NCBI RefSeq assembly: GCF_003010935.1
Contig: NZ_PGGN01000003.1
Coordinates: 248,001 to 312,000 of the forward strand
From: Phyllobacterium endophyticum
Lineage (GTDB): Bacteria; Pseudomonadota; Alphaproteobacteria; Rhizobiales; Rhizobiaceae
Length of the DNA stretch: 64,000 nt
Direction of reading: 5' to 3'
Shown: positions 47,055-64,000 of the stretch, in pieces
How the letters are laid out: every line of letters starts with the position of its first letter
Position numbering within the stretch: the stretch's first letter is position 1
Notes under the pieces: generated by a model
Told to the model about the DNA's origin: nothing
Seen by the model: only the letters and a program-made list of their open reading frames with translations
Databases searched by the model: none
Translations under genes and position numbers: made by a program

Positions 47055-48626
47055 TCATCGCATCGGAATTCTCTCCGGGTCCATTTTCCGGTGTGATCGA
47101 GCGAAGGTCTCGGCGATCGCCAGCACCGCAGCATGAATCGGTCCTGCGGTGAGGTTGGGCATAATTGACGCGTCCACTACAAAAAGATTGTCGAGCGCCC
47201 TTAGTCGTAGATTTGCGTCGACGACGGCGTCCGGATCCTTACCCATCCTGCAAGTACCACAGGGATGATGGTGTGTAATGGCCGCCTGGGCGATAAAGTC
47301 GTCCATGTCGGCCGCACTGTTCAAGGTGGTTGGCAGGAGTTCGCGCTCTCTCCAGCCGGCGAGTTCATCTTTATGCCCGATTGTCCGTGCAGCCTGGAGA
47401 GCTTGGCGAAACAGCTCGCGGTCCCGACCGGTTTGCAGGTATGCCGGGTCGATGATCAATCGGTCGCTGACCTCCGGCCCGCTGATGCGCAGGCTGCCGC
47501 GGCTCGTTGGATGTGTGATCCCGAACAGCAGCGAATATGCAGTTCCAGCGGCAGGCGCGTGAAAGCGTTCGGACACGATGGGCGCGACGCCACAACCAAC
47601 GACAATCTCGGGTTGACCGGTAGCGGTGCGCCCGTCAGTTCGCATATAGGCCATCGACTCCGAGTGTTGGAGGCGCGATGGAGGAACCGGCTTGCGTGCC
47701 GCATAAAGGTTGCCGGCACCAAGCAGGTGGTCCTGAAGGTTTCGACCGATTTCAGACATATCGATCAAGCAGCCAACGCCTGCGGCGTCGAGTACATCGT
47801 GCGGACCGATGCCCGAACGCATCAGCAAAGCCGGACTTTCCAGCGCGCCGGCACAAAGGACAACTTGATCCGCGAAGACTTCGACCGAACCCTGTCTGCC
47901 TAGGACCTCGAGGCTGCGGACCTGATGGCCCTCCAAGTTGAGCCGCCGCACCCGGGATCCCGTGAGGATGGTTAGGTTTTTGCGGTCTCGAACGGCCTTT
48001 GTGAGCCACGCGTCCGCCGTCGTAACCCGCCGCCCGTCGCGAATGTTCATAGAGTTTGGGGTGACACCGATCATCTCTCCACTGTTGTGACCCTCGAGGC
48101 GAGGCAGGCCCAACGATGCGCCTGCCTCGATGAAGGCACGAGCAAGCGGACTTACTTCGTCCGCCGGTAGATGGATCGGCAACGGCCCGCCCTTGCCGTG
48201 AATGCCGTCGCCACCAAGCGGGTGGTCTTCGATAGCCTGGAAAACCGGCAGCAGTTCATCCCAACTCCAGCGGCGATCTCCAGTCGCGTCGACCCAAGTC
48301 TGGAAGTCGGAGGGATGGCCACGCATGTAGCCCATCGCATGCAGGCAACTCGAGCCGCCGATCAACCGCCCGCGCGCCCAATGATGCACCCGGCCTGCGG
48401 TGCCGGCTTGCGGCTGCGTGCGATAGTCCCAATCATAGCTGCGGCCCTGCAACGACGGCCAGGCAGCGGGTTTCCAGATGTCGGGGTCTGCCGCCTCTTC
48501 GCCTGCCTCGATCAGCAGAACGCGGCTGTCCGGTTCTTCACTCAGTCGCGCGGCAAGCAACGTGCCGGCCGACCCACCGCCGACGATGACGATATCGGAA
48601 TTCGGTTTGCGCTCAACATTGGCCAT
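47055..48626 (-). CDS. Pyridoxine 4-oxidase (GMC family flavoenzyme)
   Basis: A 523-residue GMC oxidoreductase that oxidises pyridoxine to pyridoxal with O2, giving H2O2: the first step of B6 degradation pathway I. FAD blocks are IVIVGGGSAGTLLAARLSEE, RLIGGSSCLHAMGYMRGHPS and CAGALESPALLMRSGIGP. The active-site region has THHHPCGTCRMG and a late PNLTAGPIHAA. The whole sequence closely resembles, from memory, the M. loti enzyme of known structure. The start is one of several clustered ATGs; 48626 gives MANVERK. It is transcribed away from the other B6 genes, with the GntR gene between, as in M. loti. Confidence 0.93.
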   Translation of the reverse strand: MANVERKPNSDIVIVGGGSAGTLLAARLSEEPDSRVLLIEAGEEAADPDIWKPAAWPSLQGRSYDWDYRTQPQAGTAGRVHHWARGRLIGGSSCLHAMGYMRGHPSDFQTWVDATGDRRWSWDELLPVFQAIEDHPLGGDGIHGKGGPLPIHLPADEVSPLARAFIEAGASLGLPRLEGHNSGEMIGVTPNSMNIRDGRRVTTADAWLTKAVRDRKNLTILTGSRVRRLNLEGHQVRSLEVLGRQGSVEVFADQVVLCAGALESPALLMRSGIGPHDVLDAAGVGCLIDMSEIGRNLQDHLLGAGNLYAARKPVPPSRLQHSESMAYMRTDGRTATGQPEIVVGCGVAPIVSERFHAPAAGTAYSLLFGITHPTSRGSLRISGPEVSDRLIIDPAYLQTGRDRELFRQALQAARTIGHKDELAGWRERELLPTTLNSAADMDDFIAQAAITHHHPCGTCRMGKDPDAVVDANLRLRALDNLFVVDASIMPNLTAGPIHAAVLAIAETFARSHRKMDPERIPMR

Positions 48627-48780
48627 GGTCATCATCACTCCATCTGCCAGCTGCTGGCGGCCATTGCCGGCATGTCTGACACCGACACGGTGAAGACCCC
48701 GTGCACTGATCTGCGTTCGGCAGATACCCGATCCGGACCGTCATGAAGGTCTCAGACGGATCTGCAGTCTTTCGACGCAC

Positions 48781-49452
48781 TCAAGGTTTGCTGTCCATGG
48801 ATATCTTCGCTGCCGCCTTCGCCTTCAGGACGTGCTGTCTCGAGGCTTCTCTGGCGGCTTTCTCGTCGCCGGCGGCGATGGATTCGAATATCTCCCTCAT
48901 CTCCGAGAGGCTGCTTTGTGCTCTGCCCTCCAATGACATCGATCGTCCTCGAAAGAAGCTTATCCTGGCCACCAGACCACGATGGACTTCCTCCAGGATC
49001 GGATTCCCGCAATTGGCGAGTATGATTGAATAGAAGTCTGCCGCGGTCATGACGCGCGCGAGGCTGTCATTGCTCGATGCCGCCGCTTTGAATGCGGAAA
49101 GAGATTTCTCAAGTTCATGCAACTGATCCGGGGAAATTCTCGACGCGCATCGCCCCGCCGCCTCGACTTCCAACAGCTCTCGAACCTCGTAGATGGCGGT
49201 TGCCACCTCCCACGAAAGTGCCGGTATCGACGGTCCGCGGTTGGGTACGATCTCGATCAGGCGCTCGGCCTCAAGACTTCGCAAGGCCTCTCTGAGCGAC
49301 GGACGGCTGATGCCGAGCTGCGTGCATAGCTGACTTTCGATAAGGCGGCTTCCCGGTTGGAACATTCCGGAGAAGATGGCGAGCCGTAACTTATCTACGG
49401 TCTCCCGTTGCACTGAACGTGGCGAAATTCGCAAATTCAAATCTGGTGGCAT
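48781..49452 (-). CDS. GntR family (FCD/VanR-type) regulator of the B6 degradation genes
   Basis: A 223-residue regulator. The N-terminal winged helix includes TVDKLRLAIFSGMFQPGSRL and QLCTQLGISRPSLREALRSLE. The helical FCD ligand domain follows, with metal-site-like residues and EVRELLEVEAAGRCA. The ATG at 49452 (MPPDLNL) is preferred over an upstream in-frame start. It sits between pyridoxine 4-oxidase and the divergent degradation operon, so it probably represses both until a B6 compound or intermediate is present. Which intermediate it binds is not visible from sequence. Confidence 0.9.
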   Translation of the reverse strand: MPPDLNLRISPRSVQRETVDKLRLAIFSGMFQPGSRLIESQLCTQLGISRPSLREALRSLEAERLIEIVPNRGPSIPALSWEVATAIYEVRELLEVEAAGRCASRISPDQLHELEKSLSAFKAAASSNDSLARVMTAADFYSIILANCGNPILEEVHRGLVARISFFRGRSMSLEGRAQSSLSEMREIFESIAAGDEKAAREASRQHVLKAKAAAKISMDSKP

Positions 49453-49513
49453 CGGTGACGTCTCATGGGCCTTTGGGTCGCGATCTGACGCACAATACGC
49501 CAAGCGTCTAGAC

Positions 49514-49570
49514 TTGACAGTAAGATAGCCAGATTGTCAAATCTGAAGATTGCAAGAATGTCAGACAATC
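49514..49570 (+). promoter_or_regulatory. Divergent control region with inverted repeats (candidate GntR operators)
   Basis: A TTGACA -35-like box is at 49514-49519. Downstream, GATTGTC (49532-49538) and GACAATC (49564-49570) form perfect 7-bp arms 32 bp apart, about three helical turns. The second arm contains the palindrome TGTC-A-GACA (49559-49567). Short odd-centred palindromes like this are typical operators of FCD-type GntR proteins. No good -10 box could be fixed. Confidence 0.5.
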
Positions 49571-49638: not shown

Positions 49639-50469
49639 ATGGCGGCAGACATTCCTTGCGACCACTTCATCTTGCGGCGCATCGACGTCGGCCGCATCAC
49701 CTTGAATGTGCGCGAGAAGGGCAGCGGCCCATTGATGCTATTCTTTCACGGCATTACCTCCAACTCGGCCGTCTTCGAGCCGTTGATGGCTCGGCTATCG
49801 GATCGGTTTACGACCATAGCGGTTGACCAAAGGGGGCATGGCCTCAGCGACAAGCCACAAACCGGTTACGAGGCGAATGACTACGCCGACGATATCGCCG
49901 GCCTTGTACGCACGCTCGATCGAGGCCATGCCATCCTCGTCGGACATTCGCTTGGTGCTAGAAATTCCGTCACCGCCGCAGCGAAATATCCGGATTTGGT
50001 GCGGTCTGTCATCGCAATCGACTTTACGCCGTACATAGAGACTGAAGCATTGGACGCACTGGAGGCGCGAGTGAACGCGGGAAGCCAGCTCTTCGAGAAT
50101 GTAAAGGGCGTCGAGGCATACCTCGCCGGCCGCTATCCGAACATACCTGCTGACGCCATCAGGTTAAGGGCCAAGAGCGGCTATCGGCCGGTTGCCGGCG
50201 GATTGCGTCCATTGGCCTCGCCAGCGGCCATGGCGCAGACCGCCAAGGGCCTGCGATCAGACTTGGTGCCCGCCTACCGGGATGTGACGAAGCCCGTGCT
50301 CATCGTTCGGGGCGAGATGAGCAAATTGGTGTCAGCAGCGGCGCTGGCGAACACAAGTCGGCTGCGGCCTGATTTGCCTGTCGTCGTCGTTCCGGACGCC
50401 GACCATTACGTCAACGAGGTCTCTCCCGAGATCACGCTGAAAGCCATCAAAAACTTCATAGACGCCTGA
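49639..50469 (+). CDS. (E)-2-(acetamidomethylene)succinate hydrolase
   Basis: A 276-residue alpha/beta hydrolase catalysing the last pathway step: it splits the ring-opened product into succinate semialdehyde, acetate, ammonia and CO2. The catalytic triad is Ser104 in GHSLG, Asp128 in AIDFTP and His256 in DADHYVNE. These positions equal those of the M. loti enzyme shifted by two residues. The HGITSNS loop supplies the oxyanion hole. The ATG at 49639 follows GAGGA at good spacing. It is the first gene of the plus-strand operon and lies opposite the GntR gene. Confidence 0.93.
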   Translation: MAADIPCDHFILRRIDVGRITLNVREKGSGPLMLFFHGITSNSAVFEPLMARLSDRFTTIAVDQRGHGLSDKPQTGYEANDYADDIAGLVRTLDRGHAILVGHSLGARNSVTAAAKYPDLVRSVIAIDFTPYIETEALDALEARVNAGSQLFENVKGVEAYLAGRYPNIPADAIRLRAKSGYRPVAGGLRPLASPAAMAQTAKGLRSDLVPAYRDVTKPVLIVRGEMSKLVSAAALANTSRLRPDLPVVVVPDADHYVNEVSPEITLKAIKNFIDA

Positions 50470-50510: not shown

Positions 50511-51650
50511 ATGGCCAACGTAAACAGATTTTCGGGCAAAACGCGTCGTGCCGAGGTTGCCGGTGGCGGCTTTGCCGGCCTGACAGCCGCCATCGCCCTC
50601 AGGCAGAACGGCTGGGATGTCAGGCTGCACGAAAAGAGCTCGGAGCTGCGGGCATTCGGCGCAGGCATCTATCTCTGGCACAATGGCCTTCGCGTTCTCG
50701 AAGGTCTTGGCGCCTTGGATGATGTTCTAAAGGGCTCACACACGCCTCCGGCCTACGAGACTTGGATGCATAACAAGTCGGTGTCCAAGGAGACGTTCAA
50801 CGGTCTCCCCTGGCGTATCATGACTCGCAGCCATCTGCATGATGCCCTGGTCAGTCGGGCCCGTGCCCTGGGTGTCGACATCCGCGTCAGTTCCGAAGCA
50901 GTCGCGGCCGATCCGGAAGGACGTATGACCCTCCAGACCGGCGAAGTTGTCGAAGCCGACTTGATCGTCGGCGCCGACGGCGTAGGTTCAAAGGTCAGGG
51001 ATTCCATCGGCTTCAAACAGGATCGATGGGTTTCAAAAGATGGTCTCATCCGACTGATTGTCCCGCGCATGAAGAAACAGCTCGGCCACGGCGAGTGGGA
51101 CAATACCATCGACATGTGGAACTTCTGGCCGCGTGTTCAGCGTATTCTCTACTCGCCCTGTAATGAAAATGAGCTCTACCTTGGCCTCATGGCTCCGGCC
51201 GCCGATCCCCGCGGATCAAGCGTTCCGATCGATCTCGAAGTCTGGGTCGAGATGTTTCCTTTCCTGGAGCCATGCCTGATCGAAGCGGCGAAGCTGAAAA
51301 CCGCAAGATACGACAAGTACGAAACGACCAAGCTGGATAGCTGGACGAGAGGCAAGGTCGCCCTTGTTGGAGATGCCGCACATGCAATGTGCCCGGCTCT
51401 TGCCCAGGGCGCCGGTTGCGCGATGGTCAACGCCTTCAGTCTGTCGCAGGATCTGGAAGTGGGCTCTTCGGTCGAAGATGCGCTCGTTGGGTGGGAGAAG
51501 CGCATTCGTCCGATCACAGATCGCTGCCAGGCACTATCGGGCGACTATGCGGCGAACCGCTCGCTCTCGAAGGGAAACATGTTCACGCCAGCAGCACTGG
51601 AAGCCGCCCGCTTCGACCCGCTGCGCCGTGTTTACTCATGGCCGCAGTAG
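50511..51650 (+). CDS. 2-methyl-3-hydroxypyridine-5-carboxylate oxygenase (MHPCO)
   Basis: A 379-residue FAD-dependent aromatic hydroxylase of the PHBH fold that hydroxylates and opens the pyridine ring, using O2 and NAD(P)H, to give (E)-2-(acetamidomethylene)succinate. FAD motifs are VAGGGFAGLTAA at 16-27, the ADLIVGADGVGSKVR block near 148 and VALVGDAAHAMCPALAQGAG near 280. The length and nearly all of the sequence match, from memory, the structurally solved M. loti protein. It follows the hydrolase gene by 41 bp, the reverse of the order of the two reactions. Confidence 0.95.
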   Translation: MANVNRFSGKTRRAEVAGGGFAGLTAAIALRQNGWDVRLHEKSSELRAFGAGIYLWHNGLRVLEGLGALDDVLKGSHTPPAYETWMHNKSVSKETFNGLPWRIMTRSHLHDALVSRARALGVDIRVSSEAVAADPEGRMTLQTGEVVEADLIVGADGVGSKVRDSIGFKQDRWVSKDGLIRLIVPRMKKQLGHGEWDNTIDMWNFWPRVQRILYSPCNENELYLGLMAPAADPRGSSVPIDLEVWVEMFPFLEPCLIEAAKLKTARYDKYETTKLDSWTRGKVALVGDAAHAMCPALAQGAGCAMVNAFSLSQDLEVGSSVEDALVGWEKRIRPITDRCQALSGDYAANRSLSKGNMFTPAALEAARFDPLRRVYSWPQ

Positions 51651-52876: not shown

Positions 52877-53599
52877 ATGACAGAGAGTAAATCCGCCCAC
52901 GACAAGGTTTTCGCGGAGCTGGTTACGGCCACGAAAATCCTTATAAACGAAGGGATCATGGATACCTTCGGCCACATCAGTGTCCGTGTTCCAGAGGATC
53001 CCGAAAGCTTCTTCCTGGCGCAGAAGCTTGCTCCAAGCGCAATAACGGTCAATGACATCCAGCGCTTCAACCTCGACGGTGAGACGTCAGACAACCGCCC
53101 TTCCTATCTGGAGCGCTATATTCACAGCGAGATCTACAAGGCGCGTCCCGACGTTCAATGCGTGCTCCACACCCATTCGCCGGCTGTCCTGCCTTACTGT
53201 TTCGTCGACCAGCCGCTTCGGCCGGTCACCCATATGGGCGCTTTTATCGGCGATGCCGTCCCCGTTTACGAAATCCGCGACAAGCACGGCGACGAGACGG
53301 ATCTCTTCGGCGGCAGCCCGAGCGTCTGTCGGGACATTGCCGAGAGCCTCGCAAGCTATCCTGTCGTTCTCATGGCGCGTCATGGCGTCGTCAATGTAGG
53401 CAAGTCCGTCAGGGAGGTTGTCTTCCGCGCCTTCTATCTTGAGCAGGAAGCGGCCGCGCTTACGGCCGGCTTGCAGATTGGCACGGTCAAGTATCTGTCG
53501 CCGGGTGAGATCAAAACGGCGGGAAAGCTTGTCGGCGCGCAGATCGACCGGGGCTGGGATCACTGGTCGCAGCGTCTCAGGCAGGCCGGCCTGGCCTAG
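52877..53599 (+). CDS. 3-hydroxy-2-methylpyridine-4,5-dicarboxylate 4-decarboxylase
   Basis: A 240-residue class II aldolase-fold enzyme that removes the 4-carboxylate to give 2-methyl-3-hydroxypyridine-5-carboxylate, the MHPCO substrate. The divalent-metal histidines are in [15 protein letters not shown] and in [11 protein letters not shown]; the acidic residue is in [11 protein letters not shown]. The sequence closely matches, from memory, the Mn-dependent M. loti enzyme of known structure. The ATG at 52877 follows GGGAGAATTGGAA. Confidence 0.94.
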
Positions 53600-53695
53600 T
53601 GCCGTGGCCTTGAAGATTACCTCTACCGTCCGGGTCTTTTGCCAGTTTCCAGTTTCCTGACGCAGGTGCGTCAAACGAAGGCCACGAAACACACT

Positions 53696-55324
53696 ATGCC
53701 GCACGCGGAAAGTTACGATTACATCATCGTCGGGGCCGGATCCGCCGGTTGCGTGCTCGCCAACCGGCTGAGCGCTGATCCGCGATGTTCGGTGCTGTTG
53801 CTGGAGGCCGGCGGCTGGGACCGCGATCCCATGATCCATATACCGCTTGGATGGGGTAAGATCCTGACTGAGCGTCGCCATGACTGGATGTATTTCTGTG
53901 AGCCGGAAGACAATGTGGGCGGACGCCGGGTCGAGTGCGCCCGCGGCAAGGTTGTCGGCGGATCATCGTCTACCAACGCCATGGCCTATGTGCGGGGCAA
54001 TCGCGGGGACTACGATCGTTGGGCAGCCGCAGGGCTCAGCGACTGGTCGTATGACAAGGTGCTGCCGTATTTTCGCAAGCAGGAAAGCTGGGAAGGCGGC
54101 GAGAACCAGTATCGTGGCGGCAACGGCCCGGTCAGCACCCAGTTCTGCCGCTACAAGGACACGCTGATCGACGCCTTTGAGCAAGCCAGCGTTCAGGCGG
54201 GCTACGCGCAGACGAACGACTACAATGGCGAGCGGCAGGAAGGATTCGGCCGTCTCCAGATGACGATCTCCAAAGGCCGGCGCAGCTCGACTGCGTCAGC
54301 CTATCTGCGACCGGTGCTGAAGCGGCCCAACCTGACCGTTGTGACAGAAGCGAGCGCCACAAAGATCGTGCTGGAGGGTGCGCGCGCCACCGGCGTCACC
54401 ATCAAGCATCGCGGGGCCGAACGCACGGTCGTCGCCCGCAAGGAAGTTCTGCTTGCCGGCGGTGTGATCAACACGCCGCAGCTCATGATGCTGTCGGGCA
54501 TAGGGGCGCAGGATGAACTTGCCGCGCACGGTATCCAGACACGGGTCAACCTACCGGCGGTCGGCAAGAACCTGCAGGATCACGTCTCGGTCATTCTCAT
54601 GTACCGGCGCCGCAATCCGGGCCCGTTCCTGCGCAACATGCGTGCCGATCGAATCGGGTTCGATTTCCTCAAGACTTATCTCACGGGACGAGGTTTTTCG
54701 GCGGATGTGCCCGGCGGGATTGTTGCCTTCCTCAAGAGCGGTCCGACGCGACCGTTGCCGGATGTGCAACTGCTCTTCACGGCAGCTCCGCTCGCCGCAT
54801 GGCCATATCTCAAGCCGTTCAAGCCACCGTTTGCGGACGGCTTTGCGACGCGGGTCGTGGCCACGCAGCCTGAAAGCCGGGGCGCGGTGAAACTGGCGTC
54901 GGCCGATCCTGCGGCGGCGCCCCTGATCCACCAGAATTTCCTGGCCTCGCCGAAGGATTGGGAGTCTCTGCGGGCCGGCTTCCGGGTGGCAAGGGATCTT
55001 GCGGCGCAGCCCGCCATGCAGCCCTTCATCGAGGCGGAGTTTTTTCCCGGCCCAAAGTGTCAGAGCGACGACGAGATCGACGAGCATATCCGCCGAACCT
55101 CCATCACCGTGCATCATCCGGCCGGGACCTGCCGGATGGGGGTCGATACGGCCTCGGTCGTCGACCCGCAATTGCGGGTTCGGGGCGTCGAAGGTCTGAG
55201 AGTGGTGGACGCTTCCGTCATGCCTGACCTGGTCTGCGGAAACATCAATGCGGCAGTGATCATGATTGCCGAGAAAGCCGCCGACCTCATCGCGAACTCG
55301 AAACAAAGCGGGGCAATGCAATGA
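53696..55324 (+). CDS. 4-pyridoxic acid dehydrogenase (GMC family)
   Basis: A 542-residue FAD enzyme that oxidises the 5-hydroxymethyl group of 4-pyridoxate to the aldehyde (FHMPC); in M. loti it is membrane-associated and about 59 kDa. FAD blocks are [38 protein letters not shown] and [19 protein letters not shown]. The catalytic region is [12 protein letters not shown] with a late VCGNINAA. The ATG at 53696 replaces an upstream TTG. The stop overlaps the FHMPC dehydrogenase start (ATGA), so substrate and product enzymes are coupled. Confidence 0.92.
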
Positions 55325-56250
55325 TCCGAAATATCGCCATCATCGGTCTGGGTACGATGGGACCGGGCATGGCCGCCCGGCTCGCCAGAGGCGGCCTTCA
55401 GGTGGTAGCCTACGATGTTGCCCCGGCAGCGATCGAGCGCGCCCGATCCATGCTGAGCGCGGCCGAGACCGTTCTCGACGCCTTGGATATCGCGTCACCG
55501 TCCGCCGACGTTGGAATGGTTCGCTTCGCCGATGATATCGGCGATGCGGTATCGGGTGCCGACCTTGTCATCGAGAACGTTCCTGAAAACATTTCGGTCA
55601 AGGCCGAAGTCTATCGTTCGATCGACGGCCTGATAGGCTCGGACACGATCGTCGCGTCCGACACGTCGGGTATCCCCATCACCAAGCTGCAGGCGCATAT
55701 CTCGCATCCAGAGCGGATGGTGGGCATGCACTGGTCGAACCCGCCGCACATCATCCCGATGATCGAGGTGATCGGCGGCGAGAGGACCGCGCCGCAAACC
55801 GTAGCGACGATCCGCGAACTGATCCGCTCGATCGGCTTGCTGCCGGTGGTGGTGAAGAAGGACATTCCCGGCTTCGTCGAAAACCGTGTGCTCTATGCGC
55901 TGCTGCGTGAGGCGGTCGACCTTGTCGAGCGCGGGGTCATCGATCCGGAAGATCTCGACACGTGCGTGTCGTGGGGCATCGGCTATAAGATCGCCGTGAT
56001 CGGGCCGATGGCCCTGCTCGATATGGCGGGCCTCGATATCTACAAGTCCGTCTCCTCCTTCCTCAACGCGGATCTGTCCAATCGCGATGATGTCGCGCCC
56101 GTGGTGCTGGAAAAGACGAAGGCGTCGAAGCTGGGCATCAAGTCGGGCGAGGGCATGTTTTTCTATACGCCCGAGCAGATCAAGGCGCTGCAAGGCGAGC
56201 GGGCGCGCAAACTCGTCGCTGTGCGGCGCATCCTGGAAGGCCGGGGGTAG
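55321..56250 (+). CDS. FHMPC 5-dehydrogenase (5-formyl-3-hydroxy-2-methylpyridine-4-carboxylate)
   Basis: A 309-residue NAD-dependent enzyme of the 3-hydroxyacyl-CoA dehydrogenase fold that converts FHMPC to 3-hydroxy-2-methylpyridine-4,5-dicarboxylate. The Rossmann motif [18 protein letters not shown] is at 5-22; the catalytic His lies in [18 protein letters not shown], and the C-terminal helical domain starts at VPGFVENR-like [15 protein letters not shown]. It matches, from memory, the M. loti enzyme of solved structure. It is the last catabolic gene before the transporter genes. Confidence 0.94.
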
Positions 56251-56383
56251 CCAATGGTTCATCGTGATCACAAGACCCGCTGGGTTGGGACATTCGTAAC
56301 GGCGGCTGCTGTTGGTGCCAAGCGCGCCTTCAAGGACCGGACGGTGCTTCTAGGCTTGACGACGGTGCGTGAGGTGGCAAGCC

Positions 56384-57214
56384 ATGCGCGTTGAAACCAT
56401 TCGAGCAGCCGGCAGCCGGCCTGCTCATATCCGCCATGACGACCTGATCTCCGCCAAGGGTGTTTCGGTGGTCATGGCCAGGCAGCTGGTTCTGCAGAAT
56501 ATCGATCTTTCGATATCGAAAGGGTCGTTTGTCTCCCTTATTGGCCCTTCCGGTTGCGGCAAAAGCACCTTGCTCAAGGTTCTGGCCGGGCTTGTCAACC
56601 CGACGAGCGGCAACGTTTCGATCGCCGGTCTTTCGCCGGTCGAGGCGACGCGAAAGCGAATGATCGGCCTCGTCTTCCAGGACGCCAACCTGCTTCCCTG
56701 GAAGAATGCCGTCGACAACGCATCGATGCTGCTTGGCATCGCCGACAGATCGCTGTCGCGCGCGGATTTGCGGGCGTGCGGGCACGAGATGTTGGAACTG
56801 GTGGGGTTGGGCGACAGCGCCCACAAGCGCCCTCATGAATTGTCCGGCGGCATGCGCCAGCGCGTCGCCATCGCGCGGGCCCTGGCGCTCGATCCGGCGG
56901 TTCTGCTGATGGACGAGCCGTTCGGCGCGCTGGACGCCATTACCCGCGATGCGATGGGTCAGTCGCTGCTCGAGATTTGGCAGCGCACCGGCAAGACCAT
57001 TGTGCTCGTCACCCATTCTATAGACGAGGCCATTCACCTGTCGCGCCATGTCCACGTGATGGGGATCAAGCCTGGCCGGATCACCGGCAGCCTCGACATT
57101 GGTCTGCCCTATCCGCGCGATCTGTCTTTAGAGGAAGATCCGCAGTTCGTCAGGCTGTTGGTTCAGCTGCGAACGATGCTGCGCGCCAGCCATCAACCGG
57201 GAGGTGCGTCGTGA
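56384..57214 (+). CDS. ABC transporter ATP-binding protein (SsuB/ThiZ-like)
   Basis: A 276-residue ATPase of the nitrate/sulfonate/thiamine-precursor type. Walker A is GPSGCGKST, the Q-loop is VFQDANLLPWKN, the signature is LSGGMRQRVAIARAL, and Walker B is VLLMDEPFGALD. The DANLLPW and PFGALD forms are typical of SsuB/ThiZ/TauB. It starts behind GAGGTGG, 134 bp after the FHMPC dehydrogenase stop, and overlaps the permease start by 4 bp. It is the energiser of a three-gene importer attached to the B6 degradation operon. Confidence 0.92.
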   Translation: MRVETIRAAGSRPAHIRHDDLISAKGVSVVMARQLVLQNIDLSISKGSFVSLIGPSGCGKSTLLKVLAGLVNPTSGNVSIAGLSPVEATRKRMIGLVFQDANLLPWKNAVDNASMLLGIADRSLSRADLRACGHEMLELVGLGDSAHKRPHELSGGMRQRVAIARALALDPAVLLMDEPFGALDAITRDAMGQSLLEIWQRTGKTIVLVTHSIDEAIHLSRHVHVMGIKPGRITGSLDIGLPYPRDLSLEEDPQFVRLLVQLRTMLRASHQPGGAS

Positions 57215-58026
57215 GCGATCAACCTGTCAGCAATCTCTCCGAGTCGCGGCCTGCCTCAAGCTGGGGTGCAGTGACAGGCAGCTGGCTTCCAGCGGCTATC
57301 CTACTTTTGGCGACGATCGTGGTGTGGGAAGCCGTGGTGCGGATTTTCGCCATATCCGCTTTCATCATTCCCGCCCCGTCCGAGATCGCGCAATCGCTCA
57401 TCGCGCAATGGGGAGCGCTGATGCAGGCGACACTGGTAACGGCAGGCGAGATCCTGTTCGGATTCCTTGTCTCTATCGTGGTCGGCATTGCCATTGCGCT
57501 GGTCATCGTGCGCTTTGACTGGCTGGGGCGAGCGCTTTATCCGCTGGTGGTCCTGTTCCAGAACGTGCCCAAGGTGGCATTGGCGCCGATCTTCATCCTC
57601 TGGTTCGGCTACGGGCTCGCGCCCAAGATCGGCCTGATCCTGGTCATCGCCTTCTTCCCGGTGACATTATCGATGCTGGCGGGCATGCAATCGGTCGATC
57701 GCTCGCTGTTGTCGCTGATGCATTCGGTCGGCGCCAGCCCCACGCAGATTCTGTTCCGGATTCGTGTCCCGCATTCGTTGCCGAACCTGATGGCCGGCAT
57801 CAAAATCGCCGCGACGCTCAGCGTCATCGGCGCCATCGTCGGCGAATTCGCCGGCGCCTCCGATGGGCTCGGCTACGTCATCCAGTTTGCTTCGACCCAG
57901 CTCGACACCGCGCTCGTCTTCGCGGCCCTGCTCCTCGTTTCGGTGCTGGGCATCGCCTTCTACTACGCAGCCGAAGTTCTCGAACGCATCATCGTGCCAT
58001 GGGCACCGAAATTCAGCCACGCCTAG
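57211..58026 (+). CDS. ABC transporter permease (SsuC/ThiX-like)
   Basis: A 271-residue inner-membrane permease with six helices. The EAA-type loop is MHSVGASPTQILFRIRVPHSLPNL, interrupted as in SsuC/TauC. Other family features are FIIPAPSEIAQSLI near the start and LFQNVPKVALAPIFILWFGYG in the middle. The start is a GTG overlapping the ATPase stop. It pairs with the THI5-like binding protein that follows. Confidence 0.92.
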   Translation: MSDQPVSNLSESRPASSWGAVTGSWLPAAILLLATIVVWEAVVRIFAISAFIIPAPSEIAQSLIAQWGALMQATLVTAGEILFGFLVSIVVGIAIALVIVRFDWLGRALYPLVVLFQNVPKVALAPIFILWFGYGLAPKIGLILVIAFFPVTLSMLAGMQSVDRSLLSLMHSVGASPTQILFRIRVPHSLPNLMAGIKIAATLSVIGAIVGEFAGASDGLGYVIQFASTQLDTALVFAALLLVSVLGIAFYYAAEVLERIIVPWAPKFSHA

Positions 58027-58036
58027 GGTTCCTAGG
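58022..58036. repeat. CCTAGG-GTT-CCTAGG hairpin between permease and binding-protein genes
   Basis: A perfect 6-bp stem with a 3-base loop that begins within the permease stop codon. It lies in the 37-bp gap before the binding-protein gene. Such a hairpin could shield the downstream message or slow the ribosome, raising the relative level of the binding protein. Confidence 0.4.
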
Positions 58037-58063
58037 ACAGTCAACGACAGGAAGGATCGATCA

Positions 58064-59074
58064 ATGCTCAGACGCTCACTCTTAAAGGCAGCCACGCTCG
58101 CGGCGTTTGCCGGCGCGCTTGGCTTCTCCGGCGTAGCGCTGGCGGCCGACAAGGTCAGCGTGCAGCTCGACTGGGTGGTGCGCGGCAATCACGCCATGTT
58201 CTTCGTGGGCAAGGAGAAGGGCTTCTTCGCCAAGAACGACATCGACCTGGCCGAAATCCGCAAGGGTTCCGGCTCGCCGGACGCCATGCGGCTGGTGGGC
58301 AACGAGAACGCGGATTTCGGTTTCGGCGATCTTCCCACGCTCGCCGTTGCGCGCTCGCAGAATGTGCCGGTGGTGGCGGTGGCCGCGGTCAACCAGCACT
58401 CGCCGCTGGCGATCATCTCGCTGGCCAAGACGGTGAAGCTCACCAAGCCGGCTGATCTGAAGGGCCTCACCATCGGCATTCATCCGGCCGGTTCGACCTA
58501 CATCTTCTTCAGGGGCTTCCTGGCGGCCAATGGCCTGACGGAGAAGGACATGACGCTCAACAGTGTCTCGCCGCCCTATGAAAGCTATCTGCTTCTAGGC
58601 CGGGTCCAGACGGTGGTCGGCTATGTCGACGCCGAGGTTCCCGAACTGGAGGCCAAGGCAGGCGGACCCGGTTCGCTCAGCGTCATGATGGGCGCGGACC
58701 ATGGCTGGCAGGCTTATGGTTCGGGCCTGTTCACCTCCCAGAAGATGATCAAGGACAAGCCCGACGTCGTCGCCCGCTTCGTTAGGGCATACAGGGAGGC
58801 ATTCGATTATGTCGTGGCCCACCCCGAAGAGGCCGCCGCGATCACGGCCAAGGCTGCACCCGGTTACGCGGACAAGAAGGATGTGCTGCTTGCGCAGATC
58901 AATGCAGATATCGCGTCGACCTTCACCGGCCCGGACACCAAGGAACACGGCCTCGGCTGGATGACGAAAACGCGGTGGGAGGAAACACTCAAGACGCTCA
59001 CCGATCAGGGCGTGCTCAAGACGGCTCTCTCGGCGGACGATGTCTTCACCGACACGTTCCTGGCAAAGAAGTAA
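58064..59074 (+). CDS. THI5/NMT1-like ABC substrate-binding protein, candidate vitamin B6 binder
   Basis: A 336-residue exported binding protein. The start MLRRSLLKAATLAAFAG contains RRSLLK, close to a Tat motif, and cleavage is near VALAAD. The mature protein matches the NMT1/THI5 family: VSVQLDWVVRGNHAMFFVGKEKG, GSGSPDAMRLVGNENADFGFGDL and MGADHGWQAYGSGLFTS. Relatives bind the thiamine pyrimidine precursor (ThiY) or other pyrimidines and sulfonates. Placed directly after the B6 genes, the best guess is a pyridoxine or pyridoxate binder. CAGGAAGGA precedes the ATG. Confidence 0.85.
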   Translation: MLRRSLLKAATLAAFAGALGFSGVALAADKVSVQLDWVVRGNHAMFFVGKEKGFFAKNDIDLAEIRKGSGSPDAMRLVGNENADFGFGDLPTLAVARSQNVPVVAVAAVNQHSPLAIISLAKTVKLTKPADLKGLTIGIHPAGSTYIFFRGFLAANGLTEKDMTLNSVSPPYESYLLLGRVQTVVGYVDAEVPELEAKAGGPGSLSVMMGADHGWQAYGSGLFTSQKMIKDKPDVVARFVRAYREAFDYVVAHPEEAAAITAKAAPGYADKKDVLLAQINADIASTFTGPDTKEHGLGWMTKTRWEETLKTLTDQGVLKTALSADDVFTDTFLAKK

Positions 59075-59112
59075 GAGGCGCACCGATGTTGGACGGGCAA
59101 GTCGATGAGCGG

Positions 59113-59538
59113 CTACCGGCAGACCAGAGCGTCCTGCCTCGTGACGCAGGACACGGTGCGCTCGCCTTTCGCGGCGTCGGTGCGCTGGAGCGTGATCTGC
59201 ACGCGTGTGGCATATGCGCGACCCGACAGCCCGCACCGCAGCCGCTCGACTGGCAGGTTCTCGCGCTTGTCGTTGAGGATCGTGAACGTGCCGGTCTCGG
59301 GGTCGAACCAGAGTTCGAGGCGCGCGCTCTTGCCCGGCTCGACCGTCGCGATCCCGGCCGAATACCAGTGGGCGAAGTCGGCATTGCAGGACAGTGCTTC
59401 ATTGCCGACGTTCGAAATCGTCAATGGCACCATGTCGAGCCCGTCGGTGCCCTTTCGCACGATGACATGGTGCAACTCAACCGCGTTGGCGAAGGATGTC
59501 AACGCCAGCGCCACAGGGAGAACATAACGAATCTTCAC
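59113..59538 (-). CDS. Small exported protein of unknown function
   Basis: A 141-residue protein with a signal peptide (VKIRYVLPVALALTSFANA-VE). The mature part is beta-rich, with VPLTISNVGNEALSCNADFAHWYSA and LWFDPETGTFTILNDKRENLP, and four cysteines. It resembles small immunoglobulin-like or DUF-type periplasmic proteins; I cannot name a family. The GTG at 59538 is chosen because it starts the signal peptide and GGAG lies 10 bp upstream. It is the only minus-strand gene between two plus-strand importers, so it interrupts the B6 operon. Confidence 0.65.
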   Translation of the reverse strand: MKIRYVLPVALALTSFANAVELHHVIVRKGTDGLDMVPLTISNVGNEALSCNADFAHWYSAGIATVEPGKSARLELWFDPETGTFTILNDKRENLPVERLRCGLSGRAYATRVQITLQRTDAAKGERTVSCVTRQDALVCR

Positions 59539-59540
59539 TT

Positions 59541-59573
59541 TGCCTGAACTCCATGGGTCAGTTTTCTCAGGCA
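59541..59573. promoter_or_regulatory. Inverted repeat upstream of the small exported gene
   Basis: TGCCTGA (59541-59547) and TCAGGCA (59567-59573) are perfect 7-bp arms with a 19-bp centre. The near arm is directly ahead of the GTG start on the minus strand, over its ribosome binding site. This is a candidate operator in the divergent region. Confidence 0.35.
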
Positions 59574-59607
59574 GTCTACCTCGCATATGCACAATAACAA
59601 CATAATA

Positions 59608-59623
59608 TTGATTGGTAAATCAA
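59608..59623. promoter_or_regulatory. Inverted repeat upstream of the BMP gene
   Basis: TTGATT-GGTA-AATCAA, perfect 6-bp arms, lies 14 bp before the BMP start in an AT-rich stretch. It is a candidate operator or leader hairpin for the second importer operon. Confidence 0.4.
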
Positions 59624-59637
59624 ACAGAGAGGGTAAC

Positions 59638-60666
59638 ATGTTTAAGATTCTGAAGAGTAGTGTGAGTGCAGCTATACTGAGTGGCGTCTTGCTGGGCAGC
59701 GCGCTTGCCGGCGAAGTCAAGTCGATCGCCATCCTGACGCCCGAAGAAGGCACCGATTACGGCTGGAACCAGCAGGGGATCGATGCCGCCAGGGCGGCGG
59801 GCAAGGCCGCCGGCGTCGAAGTGGTCGTCGCCCAGGGCCTCGGCTACGGCGATGTTCGTCCGACGCTGCGGGAGCTCGCGTCCGATGGCGCCAGCTTGCT
59901 GATCGCCCACGCCAGCGGTTACAACACTTCGGGGCCTGAAATCGCCAAGGAATTGAAGGTTCCGGTGGCGATCGTCGATACGCCGAGCGGCCTGGAGAAG
60001 GGTCTCGTCGCCGACTACACGCTGAGCGGTCACCAGGGCGCTTATCTCGCCGGCCGTCTTGCCGCCAAGATGTCGCGCTCGAAGTCGGTCGGCATCGTCG
60101 TGTCGGGCGAACCGCCCTCGTGGAATTCGCAGTCAGCGGCGTTCGCGCAGGGCGTGAAGGCGGAGAACCCAGAGGTCAAGATCACCTATGCGGTGATCGG
60201 ACCCGCCGCCTACAGCGACGCAGCCGGCGGCAAGCGCGTCACCGAAAGCGTGATCGCCTCGGGCGCCGACATCATCTTCGGCCAGGGCAATGGTTCGAGC
60301 TTCGGCATGCTGCAGGCGGTCGAGACGACCAAGGCGGCTGACGGCGGCAAGGTCTATTTTATCGACGTCATCGGCGACAAGACGCCGATCGACAAGGGCT
60401 TCCTGCTGTCGTCGGTGGTGTGGAACATTGAGCCGGTCTACGCGGCGATGATCAACGACCTGAAGGCCGACACGTTCGGCACCAAGAGCTACTCGATCGG
60501 CCTCAAGGATGACTCGGTCAAGCTGCTGAAGACCGCTGCAATCCCGGACAAGGTCTGGACCGAGATCCAGATGCTGCGCGAGGAAGTCATTTCCGGCAAG
60601 ATACCGGTCGAGCCGGTCTATGATGCAGCGGCTGTCAGGGCGCTGATGACCAGCGTCGCCCAGTAG
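59638..60666 (+). CDS. BMP family ABC transporter substrate-binding protein
   Basis: A 342-residue periplasmic protein of the basic-membrane-protein/Med family. The signal peptide ends near LAGEVKS and has no lipobox Cys, so it is soluble. The BMP pattern appears as ILTPEEGTDYGWNQQGIDAAR at the start, LAGRLAAKMSRSKSVGIV in the middle and GADIIFGQGNGSSFGMLQA. BMP proteins bind nucleosides, purines or autoinducers. GAGAGGG precedes the ATG. It is the first gene of a second importer operon next to the B6 genes, so a B6 vitamer is a possible ligand. Confidence 0.9.
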   Translation: MFKILKSSVSAAILSGVLLGSALAGEVKSIAILTPEEGTDYGWNQQGIDAARAAGKAAGVEVVVAQGLGYGDVRPTLRELASDGASLLIAHASGYNTSGPEIAKELKVPVAIVDTPSGLEKGLVADYTLSGHQGAYLAGRLAAKMSRSKSVGIVVSGEPPSWNSQSAAFAQGVKAENPEVKITYAVIGPAAYSDAAGGKRVTESVIASGADIIFGQGNGSSFGMLQAVETTKAADGGKVYFIDVIGDKTPIDKGFLLSSVVWNIEPVYAAMINDLKADTFGTKSYSIGLKDDSVKLLKTAAIPDKVWTEIQMLREEVISGKIPVEPVYDAAAVRALMTSVAQ

Positions 60667-60746
60667 GGCAATTTAAACCGGCTACCGGAAGGGTGACCCG
60701 TTCATCCCTCCGGACCGATTTCATGTTTTTGAGGTTGTGGGCTTTC

Positions 60747-62318
60747 ATGGGCAGTCTTTCTTCATTACCGGGCGCCGACACATGCGACATCGTCGCGCTT
60801 GCAGGCGTGACCAAACGCTTCCCCGGCATTGTCGCCAATGACAGCATCGACCTGTCAATCCGTCCGGGCGAGGTGCATGTGCTGCTCGGCGAGAATGGCG
60901 CGGGAAAATCCACCTTGATCGGCATGCTGTCCGGCCTGCTGCAGCCGGACGAGGGACGCATACTGGTCGACGGCAAAGTGACACAGATCACCTCGCCGCG
61001 CCACGCGCTGGCGCTCGGTATTGGAACCGTCTTCCAGCACATGATGCTGGTGCCGGCTCTGAGCGTGGCCGAGAACCTTCTGCTTGGCGGGCCCTGGTGG
61101 CAGCGCCCCAGGATCGAGGCGCTTGAGGCGCGCGTCGCCAAGATCACACGCAGCCTCGGCATCACGGTGAAGCTGCATGCCAGGGTGTCGGAGCTTTCGC
61201 TTGGCGAGCAGCAGCAGGTGGAGATCCTGCGCGCCATGGTGCGCAACAGTCGGCTACTGATCCTCGACGAATCCACCTCTATGCTGACGCCGAAGGGCAT
61301 CGACGAACTGGGCACGCTGATGCGCCGCCTCGTCAAGCAGGGACTGGCGATCGTCTTTATCACCCACAAGCTCAAGGAGGCGGCGGCCTTCGGCGACCGC
61401 ATCTCGGTGCTGAAGCTCGGCCGCAAGGTCGGCGAGATTCCGCCCGAGCGCTTCCGCGCGCTGGGCGAACAGGAGATCATCTCGCAGATCGTGGATTTGA
61501 TGTTCGGCAAGCAGAAGGACGATCCGGAAGCGGTCGAGCGCCCCATCCGCAAAGTCAGCGTTGAAGCCGCTCCGTTGCTTCAGGTCACGGATCTCGCGGC
61601 GGCGCCTACGGACAACGCACCGGGCCTGTCGTCGATCTCCTTTGACATTCGTCCAGGCGAGATCCTTGGCATAGCCGGCATCGATGGCAACGGCCAGAAA
61701 CAACTGGCGGAGGCATTGGCAGGTCAACGCGTGACGACTGGTGGTTCGGTGCGGCTGGAGGGAACCGCCATCGAGATGCTGAGCGTTGGCGAACGCCGCC
61801 AGCGCGGTCTACGCTACCTGACCGACGACCGGCTGGGCGAAGGCACTGTCGGAACCTTCCCGGTCTCGATAAACTTCTTCCTCAAGCAGGTGGGCGCCCC
61901 TCCGTTCTGGCGCAACGGCTTCGAACAGCGCGCCGAGATCGACAAGCGCGCCGCCCAGCTCGTGCGCGAGTACGATGTACGCACGCCAAGCCTGAAGACG
62001 CCGGTCGCGCGGCTTTCGGGCGGCAATATCCAGAAGGTTCTGCTGGCGCGCGAACTGGCCGAAGGCGCCAAGGTCGTGATCTTCAACAAACCGACCTATG
62101 GGCTCGATCTCGCCAATACGCTGGCGTCGCGCCAGCGCATCTGCGCCACCGCAGCGCGCGGCCTTGCTGTATTGCTGATCTCCACCGACCTTGAGGAATT
62201 GCTCAGCATGTGCGACCGCATAGCCGTCATCGCCAGCGGAGCGCTGGTCGGCACCGTCGAGAACGTAGACGACGCCCGCACCAGGGTCGGTCGCCTGATG
62301 ATCGGACTGGCCGCATGA
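60747..62318 (+). CDS. Nucleoside-type ABC transporter ATP-binding protein (two NBDs)
   Basis: A 523-residue double ATPase of the YufO/RbsA-like type that accompanies BMP proteins. Domain 1 has Walker A GENGAGKST and Walker B LLILDESTSMLTPKG, with Ser in place of the usual Pro. Domain 2 has GIDGNGQKQ at Walker A, the signature LSGGNIQKVLLAREL and IFNKPTYGLDLAN where Walker B usually reads AAQPTRGLD. These changes hint at an asymmetric pair of sites. The ATG at 60747 is preferred; two upstream ATGs are in frame. The stop overlaps the permease start (ATGA). Confidence 0.9.
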   Translation: MGSLSSLPGADTCDIVALAGVTKRFPGIVANDSIDLSIRPGEVHVLLGENGAGKSTLIGMLSGLLQPDEGRILVDGKVTQITSPRHALALGIGTVFQHMMLVPALSVAENLLLGGPWWQRPRIEALEARVAKITRSLGITVKLHARVSELSLGEQQQVEILRAMVRNSRLLILDESTSMLTPKGIDELGTLMRRLVKQGLAIVFITHKLKEAAAFGDRISVLKLGRKVGEIPPERFRALGEQEIISQIVDLMFGKQKDDPEAVERPIRKVSVEAAPLLQVTDLAAAPTDNAPGLSSISFDIRPGEILGIAGIDGNGQKQLAEALAGQRVTTGGSVRLEGTAIEMLSVGERRQRGLRYLTDDRLGEGTVGTFPVSINFFLKQVGAPPFWRNGFEQRAEIDKRAAQLVREYDVRTPSLKTPVARLSGGNIQKVLLARELAEGAKVVIFNKPTYGLDLANTLASRQRICATAARGLAVLLISTDLEELLSMCDRIAVIASGALVGTVENVDDARTRVGRLMIGLAA

Positions 62319-63409
62319 GTATCGACACCCCCTCGGTCAATGCTACCGCACCCGATCCCACGAGCGCGGCGGCCGCGCGCCGTGACATCCTCCACAGGCT
62401 GCTGATGACGCTCGGCCCGATCCTGGCCGCACTGGTCATCGCCGGTTGCATCCTGCTTGCCGTCGGCGTCGACCCGCTCGCCTATTATGGCTATGTGTTG
62501 GAAAAGGGCCTGTTCTCGCCGCTTGGCATTCAGCAGACGCTGACGCGCATGGCGCCGCTGCTGTTTCTTGCCGCCGGTCTGATCGTGGCCTTTCGCGCCG
62601 GGATGTGGAATCTTGGCGGCGACGGCCAGTTCCTGCTTGGTGCCGTCACGGCAGCCGCCAGCGCTCCGGTGTTCGTCCAGTTGATGCCGGCCTGGCTGGC
62701 TCTCATCTGTTCGTTCCTGATCGCCGCAGCGGTAGCGATGATCTGGTCGCTGGTGCCGGCGCTGCTGCGGGGCTATCAGGGCGTCAACGAGATCATCACC
62801 ACGCTGATGATGACGTTCCTGGGCACCTCGCTTGCCAATGTTCTGGTCAAGCTTGTGTTTCGCGATCCCGGCACGACCGTTCCCCAGACACGCACGCTAC
62901 CGGTGGAGGACCGGCTGCCGCGCCTGTTCGATACGACCATCACCAGCGGGCTGCTGCTCGGCCTGGCAGCAATCATCATCGTGCATCTGGTGATGACGCG
63001 CACGGCGTTCGGGCTGAAACTGCGAATCGTCGGCGCCAATCCGCGAGCGGCGATTCATGCCGGGCTCGGCGTACCTGGTCTGACTGTTGCCGTCTTTGCC
63101 ATTTCCGCCGGGCTCGCGGGCCTTGCCGGTGCCGTCGACATCATCGGCGTGCAGGGCAATGTCCGCGCCGACTGGAACCCCGCTTACGGGCTGGCAGTCA
63201 TTCCGGCCGTGTTCCTCGCCCGCATGAACGGTTTTGCCGCCATAGGTTTCGTGTTCCTGCTTTCGGTGCTGTCGATCGGCGGCGAAAGCGCGGCACGGCG
63301 GCTTGGTGTGCCCAATCATTTCACACTGGTACTGGTCTCCATCGTGCTGATCGTGCTCGCTCTTGCCGAGTATGTCGACCACCGTTACAACCAGTCGAGA
63401 AAGGCTTGA
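62315..63409 (+). CDS. Nucleoside-type ABC transporter permease
   Basis: A 364-residue inner-membrane permease of the BPD_transp_2 class, with about nine helices. Conserved blocks are FRAGMWNLGGDGQFLLGA near 95, LLRGYQGVNEIITTLMMTF near 155 and GLKLRIVGANPRAAIHAGL near 240, as in YufP. It starts in the ATGA overlap with the ATPase and is followed 3 bp later by the second permease. Confidence 0.92.
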   Translation: MSIDTPSVNATAPDPTSAAAARRDILHRLLMTLGPILAALVIAGCILLAVGVDPLAYYGYVLEKGLFSPLGIQQTLTRMAPLLFLAAGLIVAFRAGMWNLGGDGQFLLGAVTAAASAPVFVQLMPAWLALICSFLIAAAVAMIWSLVPALLRGYQGVNEIITTLMMTFLGTSLANVLVKLVFRDPGTTVPQTRTLPVEDRLPRLFDTTITSGLLLGLAAIIIVHLVMTRTAFGLKLRIVGANPRAAIHAGLGVPGLTVAVFAISAGLAGLAGAVDIIGVQGNVRADWNPAYGLAVIPAVFLARMNGFAAIGFVFLLSVLSIGGESAARRLGVPNHFTLVLVSIVLIVLALAEYVDHRYNQSRKA

Positions 63410-63411
63410 GC

Positions 63412-64000
63412 ATGACCGGGCTATTCAGCGAAGTCTTTCTCGGCGCGCTCATGTTCGGCGCCGTCACCGCGGCCATCCCGCTGCTGCTGGCCGGCCTCGG
63501 CGAGCAGATGTCGGAAAAAGCCGGCGTGCTCAACATCGGCATCGAAGGCATGATGCTGGCCGGTGCCTATCTTGGCTTCGTCGGCGCGTTCTATTCCGGG
63601 TCGCTGTGGCTGGGATTCCTAACAGGTGCCGCCGGCGGCGTCGCGGTGGCGCTGATCATGGCGCTGCTCTGCGTGCGCATCGGGCTGAACCAGATCGTCA
63701 TCGGCATCGCGCTGACACTGGGTCTCGAAGGCCTGACGGCGCTGCTTCATCATTTCCAGTTCTCACGCAGCTATCCGCGCCTGCCAGCGGCGAACGCCAC
63801 CGTCATTCCGCTGCTGTCGGATATTCCTGTCATCGGACCTGCCTTCTTCAAGCATCACCTGATCGTCTATCTGGCGCTCGCGCTGGTGTTCGGCATGCGT
63901 TACCTTTATCGGCACACCCAGCTCGGCCTCAACCTGCAGGCGGCGGGCGACAAGCCGGCTGCGCTCGATGTCGCCGGTATCGATGTCATCAAGACCCGGA
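63412..64000 (+). CDS. Nucleoside-type ABC transporter permease, second subunit (partial)
   Basis: The first 196 codons of a YufQ-like permease that runs off the window. It has the conserved LAGLGEQMSEKAGVLNIGIEG segment, split by the membrane start, and RIGLNQIVIGIALTLGLEGL further on. It completes the BMP importer together with the previous permease. The full gene is usually about 310 codons, so roughly a third is missing. Confidence 0.9.
   Translation, partial: MTGLFSEVFLGALMFGAVTAAIPLLLAGLGEQMSEKAGVLNIGIEGMMLAGAYLGFVGAFYSGSLWLGFLTGAAGGVAVALIMALLCVRIGLNQIVIGIALTLGLEGLTALLHHFQFSRSYPRLPAANATVIPLLSDIPVIGPAFFKHHLIVYLALALVFGMRYLYRHTQLGLNLQAAGDKPAALDVAGIDVIKTR

What the first reader, a model, noticed from the sequence alone, without database searches (positions are those of the whole stretch)
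56384..59074. THI5/ThiY-like importer directly downstream of the vitamin B6 degradation genes
A complete SsuABC/ThiXYZ-type importer follows the last B6 catabolic gene on the same strand. Its binding protein is of the THI5/NMT1 type, whose known ligands include pyrimidine vitamin precursors chemically close to pyridoxine. Dedicated bacterial B6 importers are poorly known, so this is a candidate pyridoxine, pyridoxal or 4-pyridoxate transporter. The position is seen directly; the ligand is inference.
Basis: partly seen in the sequence, partly recalled or inferred. Interest (0 to 1): 0.7.

Follow-up and report, generated by a model that had tools for sequence, protein, structure and literature searches.

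The report
Vitamin B6 breakdown importer, probably for 4-pyridoxate
Soil bacteria that eat vitamin B6 carry, inside the B6-eating gene cluster, an uptake system whose place is taken in other species by a quite different uptake system, which suggests that both bring in 4-pyridoxate, a breakdown product of vitamin B6.

Summary
In detail: 56384-59074 encodes an ATPase, a permease and an NMT1/THI5-type binding protein on the strand of the B6 genes. Two corrections: the binding protein starts at 58064, and the cluster does not end here; a second (BMP-type) importer, pyridoxolactonase, PPAT and pyridoxal dehydrogenase follow.

The B6 link is strong. In 394 family genomes all 6 orthologues (80% or more; next best 34%) directly follow FHMPC dehydrogenase. 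In 56 of 56 loci with that gene an importer follows it: this ABC system in 29, an unrelated TRAP transporter in 27, never both.

The ligand is probably not pyridoxine. NCBIfam already names the BMP importer next door "putative B6 ABC transporter". TRAP binding proteins select carboxylates, and the arginine responsible is invariant here (25 of 25 aligned). Pseudooceanicola marinus has the 4-pyridoxate-degrading operon with the TRAP slot, but searches of its genome found no PNOX, PPAT, pyridoxolactonase or BMP protein. The slot importer follows the 4-pyridoxate/FHMPC dehydrogenase module, not MHPCO and not the upper pathway.

Best reading: a 4-pyridoxate importer (confidence 0.55), interchangeable with a TRAP system. 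Binding was not tested.

The parts
56384..57214 (+). importer ATPase (tA); an upstream GTG at 56369 is an alternative start
   Evidence: PF00005 1.2e-33; the best NCBIfam score, 219 bits, is under its cut-off (best 25 of 189 shown)
57211..58026 (+). importer permease (tP), GTG start, overlaps tA by 4 bp
   Evidence: PF00528 4.1e-30; 4-bp overlap in 29 of 29 ABC loci
58064..59074 (+). NMT1/THI5-type binding protein (tS), 336 aa, start corrected
   Evidence: PF09084 2.2e-42; start from sequence; AF2 pTM 0.77, nearest folds 4nmy, 3ix1, 4esx
55321..56250 (+). FHMPC dehydrogenase, the gene before the importer slot
   Evidence: NF042925 561.3 bits, cut-off 500
53696..55324 (+). GMC dehydrogenase taken as 4-pyridoxate dehydrogenase, by position and recalled gene order of M. 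loti
   Evidence: GMC_oxred_N/C; conserved in 56 of 56 loci
52877..53599 (+). HMPDC decarboxylase
   Evidence: 477 bits to 2z7b Mlr6791
50511..51650 (+). MHPCO, ring-opening oxygenase
   Evidence: 837 bits to 3alj
49639..50469 (+). AAMS hydrolase, first gene of the operon
   Evidence: 546 bits to 3kxp
49559..49567 (.). palindrome TGTCAGACA between the GntR and AAMS hydrolase genes, candidate operator
   Evidence: TGTCNGACA present in 39 of 47 resolved gaps
48673..48681 (.). second copy, TGTCTGACA, between the GntR and pyridoxine oxidase genes
48781..49503 (-). GntR-family regulator (named by eye)
   Evidence: ORF, conserved next to AAMS hydrolase
47055..48638 (-). pyridoxine 4-oxidase
   Evidence: 1051 bits to 4ha6
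59113..59592 (-). conserved protein of unknown family between the two importers
   Evidence: no Pfam match; seen in 54 of 56 loci
59638..60666 (+). BMP-type binding protein, 'putative B6 ABC transporter'
   Evidence: NF047927 503 bits, cut-off 400
60762..62318 (+). BMP importer ATPase (start uncertain, ORF opens at 60693)
   Evidence: NF047930 838 bits, cut-off 670
62315..63409 (+). BMP importer permease 2
   Evidence: NF047929 568 bits, cut-off 400
63412..64000 (+). BMP importer permease 1 (runs past the window end)
   Evidence: NF047928 558 bits, cut-off 465 (read in L004)

Best explanation
The genes at 56384-59074 make a binding-protein-dependent ABC importer dedicated to the lower half of B6 catabolism. 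The exported binding protein catches 4-pyridoxate outside, the permease and ATPase bring it in, and the enzymes of the same operon (4-pyridoxate dehydrogenase, FHMPC dehydrogenase, decarboxylase, MHPCO, AAMS hydrolase) degrade it. In related bacteria a TRAP transporter does the same job at the same place. The vitamers (pyridoxine, pyridoxal, pyridoxamine) enter through the BMP importer encoded with the upper-pathway enzymes. Shown: gene anatomy, synteny, the ABC/TRAP swap, the specificity of the orthologue group, the lower-only genome. Inferred: the ligand, the equivalence of the two slot importers, co-transcription.
For: Slot: 56 of 56 loci with FHMPC dehydrogenase have an importer directly downstream, 29 this ABC and 27 TRAP, never both; 24 of 27 TRAP gaps are -4 to 7 nt. 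Orthologues: 6 of 394 family genomes at 80% or more, next 34%; all 6 directly follow FHMPC dehydrogenase. Carboxylate: TRAP binding proteins select carboxylates through a conserved arginine (PMC4646407, passages); that Arg (R175, aligned with R173 of 4p47) is invariant in 25 of 25 aligned, 2 truncated of 27 left out. Dissociation: L059 has lower operon plus TRAP, no genome match for PNOX, PPAT, pyridoxolactonase, BMP protein; G271 has no MHPCO at 1e-80 but keeps the importer beside FHMPC and 4-pyridoxate dehydrogenases; 6 MHPCO loci without FHMPC dehydrogenase hold no orthologue of either slot importer. BMP importer carries the B6 name. Fold: nearest are thiamin-, FAMP- and PLP-binding. Arg40: 30 of 30 orthologues, 0 of 31 relatives.
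Against: No binding data. The carboxylate argument comes from the TRAP side and holds for the ABC only if the two are equivalent. The lower-only genome is a single case, of unstated completeness, with a TRAP and not this ABC; pyridoxal dehydrogenase was not sought there, and a missing contig or another route to 4-pyridoxate is possible. The TRAP protein L049 lacks two helper residues usual in the family (Arg152, Asn213 of 4p47) in one pairwise alignment. That Arg40 points into the pocket was not seen (no coordinates), and part of the second lobe of the model is poor (171-191 under pLDDT 50). All 29 ABC loci also have the BMP importer, so within them upper and lower roles cannot be told apart.
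Confidence: 0.55

Rival explanations
1. The importer takes up pyridoxine, pyridoxal or pyridoxamine, and the BMP system brings in something else or is redundant.
For: Lies inside the cluster; the fold family includes Thi5, which uses PLP as a substrate (PMC6385983 passages; 4esx).
Against: The BMP importer is the one placed with upper-pathway enzymes and named putative B6 transporter; the slot alternates with a carboxylate-selecting TRAP; L059 keeps the slot importer with none of the four upper-pathway proteins sought.
Confidence: 0.15
2. It imports a later intermediate or another pyridine or aromatic acid (for example MHPC, HMPDC or FHMPC), or a mixture of pyridine carboxylates.
For: Same carboxylate logic; MHPCO-only clusters carry other NMT1-type importers beside MHPCO, so import of later acids is plausible in general.
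Against: G271 shows no MHPCO and keeps the importer; MHPCO-only clusters use other importers; 4-pyridoxate is the known excreted end product of B6 (recalled).
Confidence: 0.2
3. It is an ordinary ThiXYZ (HMP/FAMP), pyrimidine or sulfonate importer that happens to sit here.
For: Sequence and fold nearest to FAMP- and thiamin-binding proteins.
Against: No Rfam hit in 46-64 kb; the genome's three TPP riboswitches are on other contigs; 6 of 6 orthologues in B6 clusters; in a tree tS forms its own clade apart from 3ix1, 4nmy and 4h6d (with long branches); SsuA model 79 bits against a cut-off of 163.5.
Confidence: 0.1

Closest known systems
ThiY, FAMP-binding protein of Bacillus halodurans (3ix1), and thiamin-binding protein of C. 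difficile (4nmy)
   Different: 23-24% identity; tS has no thiamine-gene or riboswitch context, and Arg40 where both have Asn
Thi5 HMP-P synthase of yeasts (4esx with PLP, 4h6d)
   Different: tS lacks the substrate histidine and the Cys-rich stretch (aligned Thr; no Cys); it is a binding protein in an ABC operon
BMP-type 'putative B6 ABC transporter' (NF047927-NF047930)
   Same: Encoded in the same cluster, about 560 bp downstream
   Different: Other binding-protein and permease families (Bmp, BPD_transp_2) and a double ATPase; matches 59638-64347, not 56384-59074
P5PA of Actinobacillus and ECF PdxU2/HmpT
   Same: Bacterial uptake of a B6 compound
   Different: Other families (PF13531, PF07155 according to PMC9997740); known for uptake of the cofactor or a vitamer, not for catabolism
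Ectoine importers: ABC EhuABCD versus TRAP TeaABC
   Same: An ABC and a TRAP system standing in for each other in one catabolic regulon (PMC5320631 passage)
   Different: Different substrate; there the ligand is known

Membership tests
Binding-protein-dependent ABC importer of the NMT1/THI5, SsuABC type | NMT1 binding protein, BPD_transp_1 permease, ABC ATPase side by side on one strand | tested here: met
   all above gathering scores; 4-bp overlap and 37-bp gap
Binding-protein-dependent ABC importer of the NMT1/THI5, SsuABC type | exported binding protein (signal peptide) | tested here: inconclusive
   MLRRSLLKAATLAAFAGALGFSGVALA-AD reads as a signal peptide by eye; no predictor was run
ThiXYZ (HMP/FAMP) importer | thiamine gene or TPP riboswitch context | tested here: not met
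   no Rfam match 46000-64000; TPP riboswitches on contigs C4 and C7 only; orthologues in B6 clusters
ThiXYZ (HMP/FAMP) importer | binds HMP, FAMP or thiamin | not testable with these tools
   no assay
THI5 HMP-P synthase | substrate histidine (H66) and Cys-rich stretch | tested here: not met
   alignment: Thr in place of His, HGWQAYGS in place of the Cys-rich stretch; H66 taken from the title of 4esw, the role of the Cys stretch recalled
SsuABC sulfonate importer | NCBIfam TIGR01728 above cut-off | tested here: not met
   79 bits, cut-off 163.5
NCBIfam putative B6 ABC transporter (BMP type) | models NF047927-NF047930 above cut-off | tested here: not met
   tS and tP have no such match; the best score of tA against any model is 219 bits, under the 670 that NF047930 asks (best 25 of 189 shown for tA); met instead by the neighbouring importer
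4-pyridoxate importer | binds and transports 4-pyridoxate | not testable with these tools
   inferred from context only

The most novel reading that the evidence does not exclude
B6 catabolism in alphaproteobacteria is built of modules, each with its own importer for its own entry compound: a BMP importer for the vitamers with the upper enzymes, an exchangeable ABC-or-TRAP slot for 4-pyridoxate with 4-pyridoxate and FHMPC dehydrogenases, and, in MHPCO-only clusters, another NMT1-type importer for a pyridine carboxylate such as MHPC. The slot importers would be the first 4-pyridoxate importers.
Probability: 0.4. Interest if true: 0.72.

Novelty: new member of a known kind. Interest (0 to 1): 0.57.

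Why it matters
A 2023 survey counts only three characterised transporters of B6 vitamers or PLP in prokaryotes, two with verified substrates (PMC9997740 passages). A 4-pyridoxate importer would explain how soil and marine bacteria recycle an excreted form of vitamin B6. The ABC/TRAP exchange at one slot also turns ligand prediction into a clean test: two unrelated binding proteins should bind the same compound.

Tried and rejected
Thiamine or HMP importer: rejected on context. THI5 enzyme: rejected on residues. Operator before the importer itself: TGTCNGACA does not occur in the FHMPC dehydrogenase-tA gap of the window, so the importer is assumed to be read from the operon promoter. Plasmids: no MHPCO at 1e-80 and no tS orthologue, best 31% in 2 records. 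Class-wide search: 3 of 385 genomes match MHPCO at 1e-80, the window's own and two of 47-50% identity that were not followed. Further lower-only genomes: in 394 genomes of the family of L059 only L059 itself matched its MHPCO at 1e-80. Papers: (4-pyridoxic acid or 4-pyridoxate with ABC or TRAP transporter) gave 0, 0 and 5 papers, the 5 unrelated by title; this covers only the open-licence library, listings seen. The M. loti 4-pyridoxic acid dehydrogenase paper is not held. The tree of NMT1 proteins has joined long branches and was used only to say that tS is its own clade. Rows dropped: L066 from the tree (too gappy); L003 from the alignment (no match); 2 truncated DctP of 27; my script could not place GntR in 10 of 56 loci, though the tblastn table shows the gene in 9 of them (L063 is cut). 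The operator is missing in 8 of the 47 resolved gaps, L059 and L049 among them, and one search shows none in L057, L058, L066 and L067.

Full report
What is there. The stretch 56384-59074 encodes an ABC ATPase, a permease and an NMT1/THI5-type binding protein on the + strand. The binding protein begins at ATG 58064. Upstream on the same strand lie AAMS hydrolase, MHPCO, an AA_synth protein, a PEBP protein, HMPDC decarboxylase, a GMC dehydrogenase (4-pyridoxate dehydrogenase by position, recalled from M. loti) and FHMPC dehydrogenase. Matches to solved enzymes and to NF042925 fix the identity of AAMS hydrolase, MHPCO, the decarboxylase and FHMPC dehydrogenase. Pyridoxine 4-oxidase and a GntR-like regulator are on the other strand. 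Downstream, a BMP-type importer is followed, outside the window, by 4-pyridoxolactonase, pyridoxamine-pyruvate transaminase and pyridoxal 4-dehydrogenase, all above NCBIfam cut-offs. So the importer lies in the middle of the cluster, at the end of the lower-pathway genes.

Is the link to B6 real? A search with the binding protein in 394 genomes of the family found 6 with at least 80% identity; the next best match has 34%. In all 6 the importer directly follows FHMPC dehydrogenase: the window, G271 and four more that I fetched and checked. Five of the six lie about 7.5 kb (start to start) from MHPCO; G271 has no MHPCO match at 1e-80, but has 4-pyridoxate dehydrogenase, the BMP importer, pyridoxolactonase, PPAT and pyridoxal dehydrogenase around it. 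No orthologue was found on 72,556 plasmids.

The slot. A scan with MHPCO gave 64 named loci. In 56 of them FHMPC dehydrogenase is present, and in 56 of 56 an importer follows it on the same strand: 29 have this ABC system, 27 a TRAP transporter (DctQ, DctM, DctP; Pfam tested on L049), none has both or neither. The other 8 are 2 short contigs (L068, L069) and 6 loci without FHMPC dehydrogenase. Gaps are -4 to 7 nt in 24 of 27 TRAP loci (others 33, 66, 163) and 2 to 130 nt in the ABC loci. A tree of MHPCO, HMPDC decarboxylase and 4-pyridoxate dehydrogenase (56 rows: the window and 55 loci) needs three changes of slot type, of which well supported branches force one. The swap may therefore be a single event, and the 56 loci are related, not independent.

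Which compound? Three dissociations point to 4-pyridoxate. First, the slot importer persists without the upper pathway: Pseudooceanicola marinus (L059) has the lower operon and TRAP, yet its genome gave no match for pyridoxolactonase (1e-30), BMP binding protein (1e-20), PPAT (1e-40) or pyridoxine oxidase (1e-120), while the four other genomes with FHMPC dehydrogenase in the same searches (L031, L049, L057, L036) gave strong ones. The six MHPCO-only genomes in those searches gave none either, but for a 30% BMP match in L056. Second, it persists without MHPCO (G271). Third, the 6 loci with MHPCO but no FHMPC dehydrogenase in the genome (best match per genome 30-42% identity) hold no orthologue of this importer or of the TRAP one; they hold other, distant NMT1-type systems. 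The slot thus follows the two enzymes that start from 4-pyridoxate. TRAP binding proteins select carboxylates through one arginine, present in 96.8% of the family (PMC4646407, passages read); it is invariant in 25 of 25 DctP proteins aligned here (aligned with R173 of 4p47). Two helper residues of the family, Arg152 and Asn213 of 4p47, have Pro and Ala at the aligned places in L049 (my reading of one pairwise alignment); the orotate-binding 4nn3 also lacks the first (PMC11668362 passage).

The vitamers. All four proteins of the BMP importer match NCBIfam models named 'putative B6 ABC transporter' above cut-off. In the window's genome and in G271 it stands directly before the upper-pathway genes, on their strand, and its binding protein is found in 54 of 56 loci; the exceptions are L059 and L031, whose locus ends first and whose genome does hold it. 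This makes it the better candidate for pyridoxine, pyridoxal and pyridoxamine. The name is NCBI's; I found no experiment.

Regulation. TGTCNGACA stands between the GntR and AAMS hydrolase genes in 39 of the 47 gaps I could resolve, in ABC and TRAP clusters alike; 8 lack it, L059 among them. No such site lies before the importer of the window, which fits one operon. No riboswitch was found at 46-64 kb; the genome's three TPP riboswitches are on other contigs.

Novelty. The transporter class is known; the orthologue group, its predicted ligand and the ABC/TRAP exchange were not met in the listings (open-licence library only). A parallel exchange is described for ectoine (PMC5320631 passage). Bacterial B6 transporters are few (PMC9997740 passages; PMC8427247 passages).

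Noticed in passing
L100:1186-4619 (G271, a member of the family): A B6 cluster with the importer, FHMPC and 4-pyridoxate dehydrogenases, but MHPCO not found in the genome at 1e-80; between the two dehydrogenase genes a gentisate-dioxygenase-like cupin (209 bits, under cut-off), a Rid protein, a GST and an LVIVD protein: a possible second way to open the ring.
   Followed up: partly
L060:6605-9933, L025:6633-9936, likewise L055, L061, L064, L065: Another NMT1-type importer (two permeases, ATPase, binding protein) between AAMS hydrolase and MHPCO in clusters without FHMPC dehydrogenase, and additionally in Mesorhizobium 1M-11 (L025), which also has the slot importer (Pfam on L060 only).
   Followed up: partly
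L056:11337-14155: Bradyrhizobium cluster with a further kind of NMT1 importer directly after MHPCO, and a distant BMP-type importer before AAMS hydrolase.
   Followed up: partly
L031:8959-11896: Microvirga pakistanensis carries an NMT1_3-type binding protein with a large TRAP-like permease (named by eye) between 4-pyridoxate and FHMPC dehydrogenases, besides the slot TRAP.
   Followed up: partly
59113-59592 (-): Small protein without Pfam match between the two importers, seen in 54 of 56 loci with either slot type.
   Followed up: no
51721-52806: AA_synth (PF06684) and PEBP genes sit in the operon in 56 of 56 loci; I know of no role for them in the pathway.
   Followed up: no
G000:C4:494833-495609 (L117:6810-7796): The genome's other close THI5-like binding protein sits with an importer behind a dihydropyrimidinase-like gene (named by eye), so it probably serves pyrimidine breakdown.
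   Followed up: partly
whole cluster: 7 of 7 other sampled genomes of the window's own genus have no match for MHPCO (1e-80) or the binding protein (1e-30), which suggests recent gain.
   Followed up: no
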